From assembly GCA_030700025.1 (NCBI GenBank), contig JAUYKI010000002.1, positions 1 to 41,024 of the forward strand: DNA of 41,024 nucleotides. Direction: 5' to 3'. Positions 1 through 40,513 of this stretch are shown here, piece after piece. The position numbers and the translations under genes were made by a program. Position 1 is the first letter of the stretch; each line of letters opens with the position of its first letter. The notes beneath the pieces were generated by a model, which saw only the letters and a program-made list of their open reading frames with translations, did no database searches and was not told where the DNA came from. This DNA comes from a bacterium (GTDB lineage: Bacteria; Patescibacteriota; Minisyncoccia; UBA6257; 02-FULL-45-10c).

Positions 1-111
1 CCTACGGGAAACAGAATAAATCAGCTCCAGCGGCTGATTTTTCTTCGCCCTCGGCGTATTTTGTGGTCCAAGCAAAATACGCCTGCGGGATGTTCCCTAC
101 GGCAACCATGG
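1..111 (+). repeat. Family-1 structured repeat, copy 1: GGAAACAGAATAAATC-AGC(TCCAGCG)GCT-GATTTTTCTTCGCCCTC-GGCGTATTTTG(TGGTCCAAG)CAAAATACGCC-TGCGGGATGTTCC
   Basis: Near-identical core at about 22427-22517 and diverged core at about 6472-6552. Two internal hairpins. Left flank lies outside the window. Confidence 0.85.
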
Positions 112-224
112 CAGAGTTAAATAACCTATGTAACCCGTAAAATTAGTGTTGAGGTTCATTTGACATTTCTTAAAAATCTCTATATACTAATAAACGAACT
201 TTGAAAATCTACGAAGGAGATGCA

Positions 225-828: not shown

Positions 829-851
829 AAACCCGCCTTTCGGCGGGCTTT
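829..851 (-). terminator. Terminator of rnpB
   Basis: On the minus strand: AGCCCGCC-gaaa-GGCGGGTTTTAG after the rnpB 3' end. Confidence 0.7.
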
Positions 852-854
852 AGA

Positions 855-1201
855 GCTGATAACCAATAAGCCGGATTCTGTTCCCTAATTTGCATTAGGA
901 CGACAACTATTTATCTAGCCCCGCGATTGCTCGTGGGGTCGTGCGGCACACCAATTAAGGTACGGCCTTGCACCCAGTAAGGATTTAGCCGTTTCACTTC
1001 TGCTTTTTAATCTCTATAGCAGAATTAGGCCAACTAGCTTGAGATTGGGCCTTCCCGGATCTTTCGCTCCAGGACGTCTCTGTTCGCACCTCTGCCTTAC
1101 GGACTGATGGCTGTTAGCCACTACTTTTCTTCGGCTTGCGCCGAAAAGGTGTCCGGACTTTCCTCTCCGGCTTTCGCCGAAGCAGTTATCTAGGTTATCA
1201 A
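855..1201 (-). ncRNA. rnpB: RNase P RNA (bacterial type)
   Basis: Minus strand has GATAACTGCTTCGGC...GAGGAAAGTCCGGACACC near the 5' end and GAACAGAATCCGGCTTAT near the 3' end; terminal P1 pairing TTGATAACC/GGTTATCAG. Confidence 0.93.
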
Positions 1202-1300
1202 CCTAAATATAGTATAGCACATATTGACTTTAAATCAAGTATGTGATAACATGCGTTAGCTATTTGAAAACGAGGAATGCTTAGGTTGGGAGGTGTCAAG

Positions 1301-5509: not shown

Positions 5510-5516
5510 GGTTTTC

Positions 5517-5763
5517 GGCAATCTCTCTTTTCGGAAACAGAATAACTGCTCACCCAAATCTCTTTCCTCAACCCGTTCCAGTCGCTCCAGCGGCGACTTC
5601 CACTTGTCGCTCGCTACGATTGGGTTTTGGTGTCGCGTTGCTCCCTAATTTTACCAAAACCACCTAGCCAATCGGCTCGCTTGGGTTTTGGGAAAGAGAT
5701 ATCGGCCTTCGCTTTAAAATAATTTGTATATAATTGCGGGATGTTCCGATAAGAGAGATTGCC
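5517..5763 (+). repeat. Composite repeat: family-1 termini (TCGGAAACAGAATAA...TGCGGGATGTTCCG) enclosing a family-2 element (about 5551-5707), inside inverted arms GGCAATCTCTCTT / AAGAGAGATTGCC
   Basis: Terminal match to the family-1 copies; interior match to 1632-1778; flanking inverted repeat. Confidence 0.7.
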
Positions 5764-5859
5764 CTCAATATTGAATTGTAAGATAGGCCTTATTTTTTTC
5801 GCTTGACATTTAATAAAGTTCGTGCTAACATCTTGCCAGGTCCTTAAAAGGAGGTACCG

Positions 5860-6343: not shown

Positions 6344-6444
6344 GCTTATCTATATAATACCACAATTTTGGATGGGGCAAAAGGAGGGTGTGGATAACTT
6401 TAAAGTCTCAGAAATTCTTATTCCATTGCTATATTTAGAACTTT

Positions 6445-6571
6445 TTTGCCTGCTTATTTCTCGGAAACAGAATAAATCGGCTCCAGCGGCCGGATTTTCT
6501 TCGCCCTCGGTACATTTTGTGGTCCAAGCAAAATGTACCTGCGGGATGTTCCTTAAAACAAGCAGGCAAAG
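6445..6571 (+). repeat. Family-1 structured repeat, copy 2, inside flanking arms TTTGCCTGCTT / AAGCAGGCAAA
   Basis: Core conserved; stem 2 is GGTACATTTTG/CAAAATGTACC instead of GGCGTATTTTG/CAAAATACGCC, changed on both sides. Confidence 0.85.
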
Positions 6572-6631
6572 CCGTTTACATTCTTAAATCGCGCTACGGA
6601 GAATAAAAGTTTCCTCGCCTTACTTATAAAT

Positions 6632-11556: not shown

Positions 11557-11673
11557 CCCGTTAGAGATAATTAAATTAGTTTTATATATTAAATGAAATT
11601 TAAAATTTAAAAATGTCGGTTGCTGTTAAATCGGCTTTATTACGGTCGCCTATGGCGACCTATCTCTAACGGG
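11557..11673 (-). repeat. Start-codon-abutting inverted-repeat element, copy 1 (CCCGTTAGAGATA...TATCTCTAACGGG)
   Basis: 117 bp; last base adjacent to the ATG of 10351-11556. Interior is inverted relative to the gene compared with the other two CCCGTTAGAG copies. Confidence 0.85.
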
Positions 11674-11788
11674 ACAAGTCCATAATAAAAATTATAAAGT
11701 AAAACCAGGTTATAATCCAACGGAGTTGATAAAAACCAATGAATAGATTAATATTCTCCTAGACCCCTAAAAGGAGGTAGAAAAGAGA

Positions 11789-12029: not shown

Positions 12030-12118
12030 GTAAAAACGCTCTTTCAAGAGTGAGGGATTTTTTTATTCGAAATTTTAACTTATACTAGATACTAGATACT
12101 AAATTCTAGATTCTAATC

Positions 12119-16572: not shown

Positions 16573-16692
16573 ATGAATCCCGTTAGAGACAACCAAGTCA
16601 AAATTAATATGATAAACAAGATTTTCAATATACAAAGTCGAAAGCCATTAAAATTGGTTAATTTACGATTGCCTCTGGCAATCTGTCTCTAA
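16573..16692 (+). CDS. 39-codon uORF (MNPVRDNQVKINMINKIFNIQSRKPLKLVNLRLPLAICL) spanning the element upstream of typA
   Basis: Open from the upstream ATGAAT to TAA, 4 nt before the typA ATG; expression unknown. Confidence 0.35.
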   Translation: MNPVRDNQVKINMINKIFNIQSRKPLKLVNLRLPLAICL

Positions 16693-16696
16693 CGGG
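16579..16696 (+). repeat. Start-codon-abutting inverted-repeat element, copy 2 (CCCGTTAGAGACA...TGTCTCTAACGGG)
   Basis: 118 bp; flanked by a perfect direct repeat ATGAAT, the right copy of which is the typA start. Confidence 0.88.
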
Positions 16697-18490
16697 ATGA
16701 ATATCCGCAACATCGCCATTATCGCTCACGTTGACCACGGCAAGTCCACTCTCGTGGATACGCTTTTGAAACAATCCGACACGGACTTGGGCAAGCTTAG
16801 CGAACAAGAATTAATTATGGATTTTAACGAGCTGGAACGAGAGCGCGGTATTACGATTTTTTCTAAAAACGCCGCGGTTCAGTACGGTGACACAAAAATC
16901 AATATTATTGATACCCCGGGGCACGCGGATTTTGGCGGCGAAGTGGAGCGGGTTTTAAACATGGCGGACGGAGCACTTTTGCTGGTGGACGCCCAGGAGG
17001 GTCCGATGCCGCAAACCCGTTTTGTTTTAAAAAAAGCTTTATCTATGGGCCACAAGATTGTGGTGGTTATAAATAAAATTGATAAGAAAAATGCCCGGGT
17101 AAATTACGCTTTGGATAAAGTTTTGGATTTATTTATTGAATTAGGAGCCAATGACGAACAATTAAATTTTCCGATTATTTACGCGGCCGCCCGCTTGGGC
17201 AGGGCCGGTTTAACTCCGGACTTAGACAGCATGACTGACGTCAAGCCGGTTTTTGAAACTGTTTTAAAACATATACCGCAACCGCAGGTAAATCCGGATG
17301 CTCCTTTGCAAATGATGGTAGTTTCCATTGCTTACGATAATTATCGGGGCAGAATCGGCATCGGCAGAATTTATCAGGGCAAAATTAAAGCCAATCAAGC
17401 CGTTATGCATATCAGCCGCGAAGGAAAAAGCACCAACAGCAAATTAACCGCTTTAATGACTTTTCTTGGATTAGCGCGCGTTGCCGTCGAAGAAGCGGAA
17501 GCTGGCGATATTGCCGCGATATCCGGAATCGCGGATATTAACATTGGCGATACTATTGCCGACCCGATTAATCCGATCGCGTTGCCCCCGATTAACATTG
17601 AGAAGCCGACTGTGAAAATGGTTTTTGCGGTAAATAACTCCCCTTTTTCCGGAAAAGAAGGCCAATACTGCACCTCCCGCAATTTAAAAGAACGGCTGGA
17701 AAAAGAATTGGACAATGACGTGGCGCTCCGCGTGGAGCAGGGAAAATCTCCGGACGAATTCGTGGTCAGCGGCCGCGGTGAATTGCATTTGGCTATTTTA
17801 ATTGAAAAAATGCGGCGCGAAGGATACGAACTCCAGGTTTCCCGCCCGGAAGTTATTATGCGGGTAGAAAACGGAAAAACTATGGAGCCGGCGGAAGACG
17901 CCTGGATTGAAGCGCCGGAAAAATATTCCGGAGCGGTTATTGAAAAAATGGGCAAGCGCAAAGGACTGATGAAAAATATGAATATGGAAAACGGAGTGGT
18001 TTATTTCCACTTCTTTATCCCGACCCGCGGATTGATCGGATTCCGAAACGAATTTTTAATTGATACCAAAGGCAACGGAATTATTAATACTCTTTTTGCC
18101 GGTTATCATCCGAAATGGGAAGATATCCAGACTAATATCCACGGATCTTTGGTGGCTCACGAAACCGGCGCGTCCACGGCGTACGCCCTTTTGAGCAATC
18201 AGGAGCGCGGAGAAATGTTTATCGGCCCCGGCGTTCAAGTTTATGAGGGCCAGGTAGTCGGCCAAAATGCAAAACTTGGAGATGTCGTAGTTAATGTTTG
18301 TAAAGCAAAACAATTGACTAATTTCCGAGCAAAAACCGATGCCGTAACCGACGATTTAATTCCGCCCCGGCCAATGTCTTTGGAACAAGCGCTGGAATAT
18401 ATCGGCGATGATGAACTGGTGGAAATTACGCCAAAAAGCATCCGTCTGCGGAAAAGAATTTTGAAGAATACTTTAAGAAATAAACGTTAA
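16697..18490 (+). CDS. typA: translational GTPase TypA/BipA
   Basis: [60 protein letters not shown]. Confidence 0.95.
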
Positions 18491-19662: not shown

Positions 19663-19762
19663 AAGTAATTTAAATTATGGAACAAAGGGTGTCAGGTCGC
19701 AAGTGTCCCGGGCCAGGTATATTGGCGGGTTTTTAGTTTTGTGTTAAAATATAACAAGTCAG

Positions 19763-20029
19763 AACCTATCCCAATAATATTTCCTAACCGCGTTGCTAAG
19801 ATAAATTGAAAATTTCTAGGCGTGCCGAGGAGCTTGTGGCCAAAGCCACAGCGAGGAGGCAGAACAACGAAATTTTCAATTTAGCTAGCAACCGAAGGAT
19901 GCAGCTAATTTTGTCCATAACGTCGTTGCTCGTCGAAGATATGGCTTAAAGCTATAAATCTTCTCCTCGCGCCTAGTTCTGAACAAAATTAGCTAGTATC
20001 GCGGTTGGAAGATATTATTGGGATAGGTT
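19763..20029 (+). repeat. Family-3 large structured repeat, copy A (AACCTATCCCAATAATAT...ATATTATTGGGATAGGTT)
   Basis: About 30-bp imperfect terminal inverted repeat, two long internal arms; matches 22620-22887 in inverse orientation. Confidence 0.88.
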
Positions 20030-21693: not shown

Positions 21694-22404
21694 TTGCTTT
21701 ATTTAACAAAATATGGTATAGTATCTCTTATGTCTGTATTTATCAGTTTTCTAAAAAAATTACTTATTAGTTCCTATATTGCCACCGCGAGCGTGTCTCC
21801 GAGCGTCCCAAGCCTGCCTGCCGACAGGCAGGCGCCCCTTAGCGTGTCTGGGGCGTCTTTAATTGAGGTAACGGGCCAAACTCGTGAAATAGCCAGGAGC
21901 GTCAAAATGGACGTCCCAAAGGTGCCTTTTTACTCGCAATTTGCCGATATTTCCGACCCGAAATGGCAAGGGTTGGGCTGTGGCGTCGCCAGCTTGGCTA
22001 TGCTTATTGAGTTTTATAAACCGGGTATTGTTAACGTTGATAATCTGCTTCAAGAAGGTATTAATGCCGGAGCGTTTATTCCGGGCGCCGGATGGTCGCA
22101 TAACGGCTTAGTTCTGATTGCCAACAAATATGGCTTGCGAGGTTCCACCCAGGATTTATCTAAATTAGATTCCGACGCCACCCTTGCTCAATTGGAAGAA
22201 CTTTTAAACGAGGGCCCAGTTATAGCATCAGTGCATTATAAATTGGAACCGGGAAATCCAATCCCCCATCTTATTGTTGTCAACGGAATTAAGGACGGCC
22301 TGGTTTATTTTAACGACCCGGCTTCAGCCTTTGGCGGAAAAACTATTTCCGTCCAAGATTTTATGAAAGCGTGGAAAAAAAGAATTATTGTGGTCAGGCC
22401 TTAA
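21694..22404 (+). CDS. C39-like peptidase family protein (true start probably 21730)
   Basis: VPFYSQFADISDPKWQGLGCGVASLAMLIEFY, HLIVVNGIKDGLVYFNDPA. Confidence 0.8.
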   Translation: MLYLTKYGIVSLMSVFISFLKKLLISSYIATASVSPSVPSLPADRQAPLSVSGASLIEVTGQTREIARSVKMDVPKVPFYSQFADISDPKWQGLGCGVASLAMLIEFYKPGIVNVDNLLQEGINAGAFIPGAGWSHNGLVLIANKYGLRGSTQDLSKLDSDATLAQLEELLNEGPVIASVHYKLEPGNPIPHLIVVNGIKDGLVYFNDPASAFGGKTISVQDFMKAWKKRIIVVRP

Positions 22405-22405
22405 C

Positions 22406-22541
22406 AACCTCGGCTATATTTCTTTTCGGAAACAGAATAAATCAGCTTCAGCGGCTGATTTTTCTTCGCCCTCGGCGTATTTTGTGGTCCAAGCAAAATA
22501 CGCCTGCGGGATGTTCCTCAAAGAAACATAGCCCCGGTTTT
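22406..22541 (+). repeat. Family-1 structured repeat, copy 3, in flanking arms AACCTCGGCTATaTTTCTTT / AAAGAAAcATAGCCccGGTT
   Basis: Core nearly identical to copy 1; flanking arms unique to this locus. Confidence 0.87.
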
Positions 22542-22619
22542 TATTTGCGAATCTTGGATATTGAAAACCAATTCCTTCTTCGTACCGACCACAAGTGAAG
22601 GGGGTTTAGAAATTCTTGG

Positions 22620-22887
22620 AACCTATCCCAATAATATCTTCCAACCGCGATACTTGCCAATTTTCTTTAGAACCAGGCTTGAGGGCGAAGAATGTATAGA
22701 ATTATACATTTGAGCCCGAAAACGAAGTTATAAAGAAAATTGGCCGTATCCCGTAGGGTTGATGTCTAAATTGAAAATTTCGTTGTTTTGCCTCCTCGCT
22801 GTGGCTATGGCCACAAGCTCCTCGGCAGGCCTAGAAATTTTCAATTTATACTGGCAACGCGGTTAGGAAATATTATTGGGATAGGTT
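22620..22887 (-). repeat. Family-3 large structured repeat, copy B
   Basis: Reverse complement aligns with copy A; second arm stem changed on both strands (GCCAATTTTCTTTA/TAAAGAAAATTGGC vs AGCTAATTTTGT/ACAAAATTAGCT). Confidence 0.88.
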
Positions 22888-24731: not shown

Positions 24732-24740
24732 AATATTCCC

Positions 24741-24814
24741 CGATCCCTCACTCTTACGAAAGCTAACTCGCCATATCCGATCCCTCACTCTTACGAAAGC
24801 TAACTCGCCATATC
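24741..24814. repeat. Two tandem 37-bp units CGATCCCTCACTCTTACGAAAGCTAACTCGCCATATC
   Basis: Identical direct repeat, no spacer. Confidence 0.9.
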
Positions 24815-24817
24815 TGG

Positions 24818-24850
24818 TCCCTCACTTTTATATAAGAGTGAGGGATTTTT
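24818..24850 (+). terminator. Terminator-like hairpin built from the CCCTCACT motif
   Basis: TCCCTCACTtttatataAGAGTGAGGGATTTTT. Confidence 0.65.
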
Positions 24851-24912
24851 AATTTTCACTTTCGTAAAAGTGAGGGAGGGTTTTTATTTATCTAGGGCCG
24901 AGAAAAACTAAT

Positions 24913-39410: not shown

Positions 39411-39415
39411 ATTTT

Positions 39416-39494
39416 CCCTCACTTTTGAGAAAGTGTTAACGAAATTAAATTCTCCATTATTAATGGGGGGGTTAGCTTTCTCAAGAGTGAGAGA
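39416..39494. repeat. CCCTCACT-family inverted-repeat element
   Basis: CCCTCACTtTTGAGAAAG...CTTTCTCAAgAGTGAGaGA; related motifs at 2263, 12040, 24741, 40130. Confidence 0.6.
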
Positions 39495-40121: not shown

Positions 40122-40150
40122 ATTTAGACCGCTCTTTCAAGAGTGAGGGA

Positions 40151-40513
40151 TTATTTTCCTCTTAATTCCCGCAATTTATTTTTCTGTTTAGAATCCTGCG
40201 GGCGAACTCTTTCTTTATACTTGCTCACTTCCCGCTGTAATTCTTTTTTAATTTCATCAACGGCTCGGCGGATGTTCCAATCGCTGTGTTCGGCGCGGAC
40301 TAATTTGCCGGGCAATTCTAAATTACACTCAGCTTTAAAAACAGGCCCCTTTTGGTGATGCTTGGTAATCCGGGCAATTTCTATAAATGCCTCAACAGCG
40401 CCTTTTTCTACCAGGCGTTTTAAATATTTCTCCAATGAACCGATTTTTTCTTCAATATAACTCCTGATGGCCGGAGTTAAGTCTAAATTCGTGGCTTTAA
40501 TATTAATTTTCAT
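40151..40513 (-). CDS. hpf: ribosome hibernation promoting factor / RaiA-like
   Basis: MKINIKATNLDLTPAIRSYIEEKIGSLEKYL, RRAVDEIKKELQREVSKYKER; start taken at MKINIK. Confidence 0.9.
   Translation of the reverse strand: MKINIKATNLDLTPAIRSYIEEKIGSLEKYLKRLVEKGAVEAFIEIARITKHHQKGPVFKAECNLELPGKLVRAEHSDWNIRRAVDEIKKELQREVSKYKERVRPQDSKQKNKLRELRGK

What the first reader, a model, noticed from the sequence alone, without database searches (positions are those of the whole stretch)
6445..6571. Family-1 element: invariant loops, compensating stems, and locus-specific outer arms
Seen directly: copies at 1-111, 6445-6571 and 22406-22541 keep CGGAAACAGAATAAATC, loop TCCAGCG, TTCTTCGCCCTC, loop TGGTCCAAG and TGCGGGATGTTCC. 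Stem 2 changes on both sides (GGCGTATTTTG/CAAAATACGCC vs GGTACATTTTG/CAAAATGTACC). Where both flanks are visible, the core is enclosed by a palindrome unique to that locus (TTTGCCTGCTT/AAGCAGGCAAA; AACCTCGGCTATaTTTCTTT/...). Inference: the core either inserts into the loop of existing hairpins such as terminators, or creates complementary flanks. Either would be an unusual targeting mode.
Basis: partly seen in the sequence, partly recalled or inferred. Interest (0 to 1): 0.74.

Follow-up and report, generated by a model that had tools for sequence, protein, structure and literature searches.

The report
Mobile element with self-made matching arms
A small repeated DNA element of tiny uncultured bacteria (Paceibacterales) carries a conserved folded core whose two outer ends always match each other but differ from site to site, apparently because one flank is copied backwards to make the other, and it even sits in frame inside housekeeping genes.

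Summary
The 90-nt core has about 24 matches in this 830-kb genome. A covariance model finds it in 78 of 244 genomes of the order but in only 4 of about 378 sampled elsewhere in the phylum. Rfam has no match. Covariation is very strong: 31 of 48 pairs change on both sides, 0 of 500 shuffles reach the score. Across 129 copies the arms are complementary and locus-specific (mean pairing score 12.2, against 1.5 with another genome's arm). Cores at least 97% identical have arms only 49% identical.

The element sits in frame inside cysteine desulfurase and MnmA genes. In 9 of 11 empty relatives there is no palindrome above chance. In 12 of 16 filled genes the gene-5' arm is host coding sequence and the gene-3' flank its inverted copy (p<0.01). 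At one orthologous site a block changed on both arms; in another pair the core lies inverted within the same arms. These are footprints of DNA template switching. Mismatch types show that the favoured fold is on the complement of the displayed strand. The mobilising enzyme is unknown: Y1 transposase is absent, and reverse transcriptase does not co-occur.

The parts
1..117 (+). Element copy cut by the contig start: core 7-96 (GGAAACAG...GATGTTCC), 3' arm of the GCTCCGCC class from 97
   Evidence: sequence; core identical to G000:C4 and G000:C13 copies; R1 115.9 bits
5513..5768 (+). Related longer copy: same terminal motifs (5533-5545 GGAAACAGAATAA; 5735-5747 TGCGGGATGTTCC) and its own arm (5515-5532 / 5748-5764), but a different interior of about 190 nt with its own hairpins; a similar interior recurs at G000:C3:527 with another arm
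   Evidence: (R1 33 bits)
6443..6462 (+). 5' outer arm of the reported copy (TTTTTGCCTGCTTATTTCTC)
   Evidence: pairs with 6553-6573
6463..6552 (+). Core of the reported copy: three-way junction. GGAA/TTCC closing pairs 6463-6466/6549-6552; stem 1 6469-6482/6488-6500 with loop CCAGC; CCC/GGG 6504-6506/6543-6545; stem 2 6508-6520/6528-6541 (GTACATTTTG type)
   Evidence: 128.3 bits
6553..6573 (+). 3' outer arm of the reported copy (TTAAAACAAGCAGGCAAAGCC)
22406..22541 (+). Third copy: core 22428-22517, arms AACCTCGGCTATATTTCTTTTC / TCAAAGAAACATAGCCCCGGTT, starting directly after the TAA of the C39-peptidase-like gene 21694-22404
   Evidence: (144 bits)

Best explanation
This is a dispersed palindromic element of Paceibacterales that spreads within genomes. 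Shown: a conserved core of about 90-140 nt (three-way junction, invariant loops, freely varying stems) lies between outer arms of about 22 bp; near-identical cores sit at unrelated loci; it lies mostly just downstream of stop codons and sometimes in frame inside genes. Inferred from empty sites, a block change and a core inversion: the arms are not a pre-existing target hairpin. One arm is target sequence, and the other is written as its reverse complement by template switching between the two sides of the hairpin, primed by the short complementary ends of the core (GGAA/TTCC). Repeated switching keeps the arms matched while they drift, extends them into unique flank, and can invert the core. 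Inferred: core and arm modules are exchanged between copies by gene conversion. Inferred from mismatch types: the strand whose fold matters is the complement of the one displayed. How new copies insert is unknown.
For: Copies and distribution. Covariation 0.388 against 0.151 in shuffles, 31/48 pairs double-changed, 0/500. Locus-specific complementary arms in 129 copies. Core and arm decoupled: 18 same-genome pairs with cores >=97% identical have 49% identical arms (baseline 47%), correlation -0.07 in the own genome; near-identical arms carry different cores. Empty versus filled sites in MnmA (G128, G124 empty; G125, G123, G126, G127 filled; one genus) and cysteine desulfurase (G191, G192 empty; G193, G194 filled; one genus; G239 and others filled): 9/11 empty sites without a palindrome above chance, host-codon arm complementary to the gene-3' flank with p<0.01 in 12 of 16 filled sites. 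Compensated block change at one orthologous site, G189/G190. Core inverted between the same arms in G217/G218. Multibase compensatory change, stem extension and loop inversion are the footprints predicted for template switching (PMC8794818, PMC8604942). Complement strand: A.C 117 versus G.U 51 within helices, p about 4e-7, with the same trend whichever way the neighbouring gene points.
Against: No transposition event was seen and no enzyme identified. Four of 16 filled coding sites do not show the host-copy signal at p<0.01 (G128 p=0.33, G121 p=0.70, G214 p=0.09, G123 p=0.03). Two empty sites (G237, G000) hold a weak hairpin. Compensated changes could instead come from selection on a folded RNA or DNA. 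Some filled sites share ancestry, so the number of independent insertions is smaller than the number of genomes. Which arm is the copy may be decided by protein constraint rather than by mechanism. The block change and the core inversion are single cases.
Confidence: 0.6

Rival explanations
1. Hairpin-loop insertion: the core is a mobile DNA that targets loops of existing hairpins (terminators, repeats), so each copy shows the host hairpin as its outer arms.
For: Arms are locus-specific. Copies with a shared inner arm have locus-specific complementary tips further out (L117/L119; L118/L119). Other palindromes sit inside copies of this element (L001, L027, L051). Two empty cysteine desulfurase sites hold a weak hairpin.
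Against: 9 of 11 empty coding sites have no palindrome above chance; the gene-3' arm is absent from empty relatives; no T-run after the arms, so they are not terminators; arm classes recur at unrelated loci.
Confidence: 0.13
2. A structured RNA family (non-coding gene or cis element) whose stems vary by ordinary compensatory evolution under selection; dispersal is by duplication.
For: Strong covariation and invariant loops; mismatches favour the complement strand, where they read as G.U and G.A; orientation bias, 62 sense against 12 antisense next to an upstream gene.
Against: The favoured strand is antisense to the adjacent gene in most copies; copies lie in frame inside genes in both orientations; identical cores carry unrelated arms; no Rfam match. 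Transcription was not tested.
Confidence: 0.15
3. Retroelement: the complement-strand RNA is copied at a nick by a reverse transcriptase, and the cDNA end snaps back on GGAA and copies the host flank, giving the inverted arm at the moment of insertion.
For: The favoured strand would be the RNA strand; inverted host copy beside the core; the own genome has three reverse transcriptases.
Against: Reverse transcriptase is no commoner in genomes with the element (my count 31/78 against 107/243; 5 of 11 high-copy genomes); the antisense cases in cysteine desulfurase have the copy on the other side of the element.
Confidence: 0.07
4. REP or IS200/IS605-type element moved by a Y1 (HUH) transposase.
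For: Short, imperfectly palindromic, mostly intergenic, single-strand folding preference.
Against: No PF01797 match in the own genome, 98.7% complete, which has recent copies.
Confidence: 0.03

Closest known systems
Rickettsia palindromic elements (RPE)
   Same: About 100-150 bp, palindromic, foldable, dispersed, inserted in frame inside unrelated housekeeping genes as well as between genes (PMC10969869); mobilisation unknown (own knowledge).
   Different: Different phylum; a three-way-junction core with strong covariation; arms that are inverted copies of host flank; both orientations seen at one site. Sequence relation to RPE was not tested.
Quasipalindrome / template-switch mutation at inverted repeats
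   Same: Arm homogenisation in blocks, stem extension and spacer inversion (PMC8794818, PMC8604942).
   Different: Known as a mutation process at static hairpins; here the hairpin belongs to a dispersed element found at many sites.
Integron attC sites
   Same: Structure conserved more than sequence; the complement (bottom) strand is favoured; placed right after stop codons (own knowledge of attC).
   Different: No conserved end boxes, the ends are locus-specific; no cassette array seen; integrase not tested.
REP/BIME with RAYT transposase
   Same: Short palindromic repeats, mostly extragenic.
   Different: No Y1 transposase in the own genome; long, locus-specific arms; conserved multi-stem core.
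MITEs such as ERIC and RUP
   Same: Short non-coding dispersed elements, some with in-frame insertions (PMC10969869).
   Different: No fixed terminal repeats beyond GGAA/TTCC and no obvious target duplication.

Membership tests
Rickettsia palindromic elements | About 100-150 bp palindromic element able to fold | tested here: met
   90-nt core plus arms, stable fold
Rickettsia palindromic elements | In-frame insertion inside protein-coding genes | tested here: met
   MnmA and cysteine desulfurase, open frames through the element
Rickettsia palindromic elements | Sequence membership in one of the described RPE families | not tested
   no RPE sequences were compared; Rfam gave no match
REP / RAYT | Cognate Y1 (PF01797) transposase in the genome | tested here: not met
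   no match in the own genome; control genomes ring
REP / RAYT | High copy number, often above 100 per genome | tested here: not met
   about 24 matches
Integron attC | Conserved end boxes (RYYYAAC / GTTRRRY) | tested here: not met
   element ends are locus-specific arms
Integron attC | Integron integrase in the genome | not tested
   not searched
MITE | Conserved terminal inverted repeats | tested here: not met
   only GGAA/TTCC is conserved; arms vary by locus
MITE | Target site duplication | tested here: inconclusive
   CTACG flanks both ends in one arm class only; elsewhere no direct repeat was noticed, no systematic test
Known structured RNA (Rfam 15) | Covariance-model match | tested here: not met
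   none at gathering in the window or 10 other loci for the element, and none at E<=10 over the core
Template-switch footprints | Multibase compensatory change at one orthologous site | tested here: met
   G189/G190 orthologue, block in both arms and in stem 2
Template-switch footprints | Stem extension by an inverted copy of flank | tested here: met
   12 of 16 filled coding sites p<0.01; empty relatives lack it
Template-switch footprints | Spacer inversion between the arms | tested here: met
   G217 versus G218, same arms and opposite core

The most novel reading that the evidence does not exclude
Insertion itself builds the palindrome: a single-stranded form of the core (complement strand folded) joins the target, its end snaps back on the closing GGAA/TTCC pairs and copies 20-40 nt of host flank, so each new copy writes its own locus-specific inverted arm. 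That would be a mode of target-site inverted duplication.
Probability: 0.25. Interest if true: 0.88.

Novelty: new variant of a known kind. Interest (0 to 1): 0.72.

Why it matters
It adds a structured, dispersed element to a large, mostly uncultured bacterial order and gives natural filled/empty pairs inside conserved genes, where the origin of the arms can be read directly. That makes a long-standing question testable: how long hairpin stems arise and stay perfectly paired. It also gives a second case, after Rickettsia, of palindromic elements inserted in frame in housekeeping genes of reduced genomes, with one desulfurase loop hit repeatedly across families.

Tried and rejected
Rfam at gathering and permissive thresholds: nothing for the element. 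Y1 transposase: absent. Reverse transcriptase: present in the own genome but no co-occurrence with the element. Terminator idea: no T-run beyond the 3' arm. Viral contigs: two exact patterns, no match. Replication-strand bias: copies lie in both orientations within single contigs, not pursued. Fold energy by strand: the complement is more stable in 117 of 129, but shuffles also favour it (-5.1 against -7.3), so I rely on mismatch types instead. Orthologous intergenic site L119/L180 (G190/G189): the flank was too diverged to call the empty site. Papers: no description of such an element in Parcubacteria or Patescibacteria turned up, though the library is partial.

Full report
What is there. The window is one whole contig (C16) of an 830-kb, 98.7% complete genome. 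BLAST with the 90-nt core gives 24 matches in that genome, some partial. Nine places match the 5' pattern exactly; one pair of contig ends may be the same physical copy, because C13 and this contig both begin inside or beside a core with the same arm. A fourth, longer relative lies at 5513-5768, with the same ends and a different interior; a similar interior recurs at G000:C3:527 with a different arm.

Structure. The displayed strand reads: outer arm, GGAA(A/C)CAGAATA, stem 1 with loop CTCCAGCG, TTTCTTCGCCCTCG, stem 2 (often with an extra hairpin and the bulge ACCAAGC), TGCGGGATGTTCC, outer arm. On 21 copies the structure has 88% of cells paired, 31 of 48 pairs with a change on both sides and a covariation score of 0.388 (shuffles 0.151, 0 of 500); sliding the partner by one to three columns destroys it. 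The structure was derived partly from these sequences, so the slide control favours it; the shuffle control ignores relatedness.

Distribution. The covariance model R1 finds the family in 78 of 244 genomes of the order, in 56 of 173 genera, with 12 matches in several (the search scored at most 12 candidates per genome). A phylum sample of 380 gives only four genomes outside the order. Named genomes with an exact pattern are Brennerbacteria, Liptonbacteria and Wolfebacteria; that these fall in Paceibacterales is my knowledge. Rfam has nothing for it, and two exact patterns give nothing in viral contigs.

Arms. In 129 copies the 5' arm pairs with its own 3' arm (mean score 12.2, median length 22) but not with the arm of a copy from another genome (1.5) or the same genome (3.2). 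The arms have a weak position consensus next to the core (my reading). Cores at least 97% identical within a genome have arms averaging 49% identity, against 47% for all same-genome pairs; in the own genome the correlation of core and arm identity is -0.07 over 210 pairs. The reverse also holds: one arm class, GCTCCGCCAGATTGCC, recurs at several loci with different cores, and L117 and L119 of G190 have 95% identical arms with 80% identical cores. I infer that core and arm are exchanged as modules, most simply by gene conversion.

Position. With simple ORF calling, 62 copies have a sense gene ending within 60 nt upstream and 12 an antisense gene starting there (p about 3e-9). The copies at 5513 and 22408 in this window start 3 nt after a gene end by that count. 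Part of this is avoidance of 5' ends; the orientation part (62 against 21 at gene 3' ends) remains (p about 8e-6). No T-run follows the arm, so these are not intrinsic terminators.

In genes. Four copies lie in frame in the sense direction: in cysteine desulfurase of G193, G194 and G239, and in MnmA of G125 (gene names are my reading of the sequences, which were not put through Pfam). A copy lies antisense but open in cysteine desulfurase of G214. A wider search shows the same desulfurase loop, between NLALRG and the PKIIVS segment, holding the element in more genomes, along with unrelated AT-rich inserts in others. Some share ancestry.

Empty sites. In the same genus as the filled G193/G194, the desulfurases of G191 and G192 are empty; in the same genus as filled G125, G123, G126 and G127, MnmA of G128 and G124 is empty. 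Across 11 empty sites, 9 have no palindrome beyond shuffles. G237 and G000 do; reading the sequences, I attribute this to the codons for NNLA and PKII, outside the arms. In filled sites the 30 nt of host codons after NLALRG, or after TGHYV in MnmA, are complementary to the gene-3' flank with p<0.01 in 12 of 16. Examples: G194 has GGCGTGTTCGAGCATATT (host; G192 has GGCGCGGTTGAGTATGCG) and downstream CATACTCCGAACACGCC; G239 has GTAAAAAGTTTTG and downstream CAAAACTTTTTAC.

How. Three footprints point to template switching between the arms. First, at the G189/G190 orthologue (L097/L115) a block of about seven arm positions differs on both sides, with near-identical sequence just outside, and three positions of stem 2 differ on both sides. 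Second, the gene-3' arm is an inverted copy of host flank (above). Third, in G217 and G218 the same arms hold the core in opposite orientations. Published work predicts multibase compensation, stem extension and loop inversion (PMC8794818), and reports arm homogenisation and spacer inversion in yeast genes (PMC8604942). What is not shown is whether the inverted arm is written at insertion or afterwards. The side that is copied may be set by protein constraint: the helix codons cannot change, the following loop can.

Which strand. Within helices, genome-deduplicated, A.C mismatches number 117 against 51 G.U (p about 4e-7); C.C 19 against G.G 4; C.T 27 against G.A 9. Read on the complement these are G.U, G.G and G.A, the tolerated mismatches. 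The conserved TC/TC internal loop of the arm becomes tandem GA/GA. The G.U/A.C imbalance has the same direction whether the neighbouring gene is sense, antisense or distant, though it is weaker in the antisense class. So the strand whose fold is favoured is the complement. These mismatches are tolerated in both RNA and DNA, so this does not say which.

Mobilisation. Near-identical cores at unrelated loci show recent spread, but no enzyme is identified. Y1 transposase is absent. Reverse transcriptase occurs in 31 of 78 element genomes by my count, against 107 of 243 overall, so there is no association.

Verdict. Real, widespread and, as far as the held library shows, undescribed. In behaviour it is closest to Rickettsia palindromic elements, combined with a template-switching history that can be read at single sites. 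Filed as a new variant of a known kind.

Noticed in passing
window 12042-12064, 24740-24857, 39415-39454, 40135-40157: A separate family of palindromes, TCCCTCACTCTT...AAGAGTGAGGGA, one place with a perfect 37-nt tandem pair.
   Followed up: no
window 19762-19797 and 22619-22654: A 36-nt repeat GAACCTATCCCAATAATAT..., 86% identical, the second just downstream of the element copy at 22406.
   Followed up: no
window 11628-11674 and 16651-16697: A 47-nt repeat with a small palindrome ending in CTCTAACGGGA.
   Followed up: no
window 851-1202: Bacterial RNase P RNA, minus strand, only just above its gathering score.
   Followed up: no
L001, L027, L051 near 13784, L034, L035: Other small palindromes sit inside copies of this element, for example ACCTGCCTACCGGCAGGCAGGT between GGGA and TGTTCC in L001.
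   Followed up: partly
L231, L232, L237, L243, L248, L249: The desulfurase loop that holds this element also holds unrelated AT-rich palindromic or tandem inserts in other genomes: a general insertion-tolerant hot spot.
   Followed up: partly
G000:C5:82283-84251: One of three reverse transcriptase genes of this genome lies about 150 nt from the empty cysteine desulfurase gene.
   Followed up: no
L262 (G000:C2:6463-6477): An arm of the GCTCCGCC class with GGGAAACA but no core: looks like a deletion derivative of a copy.
   Followed up: partly
L091, L124, L098: Pairs of copies in opposite orientation close together, in L091 and L124 only about 8 nt apart.
   Followed up: no
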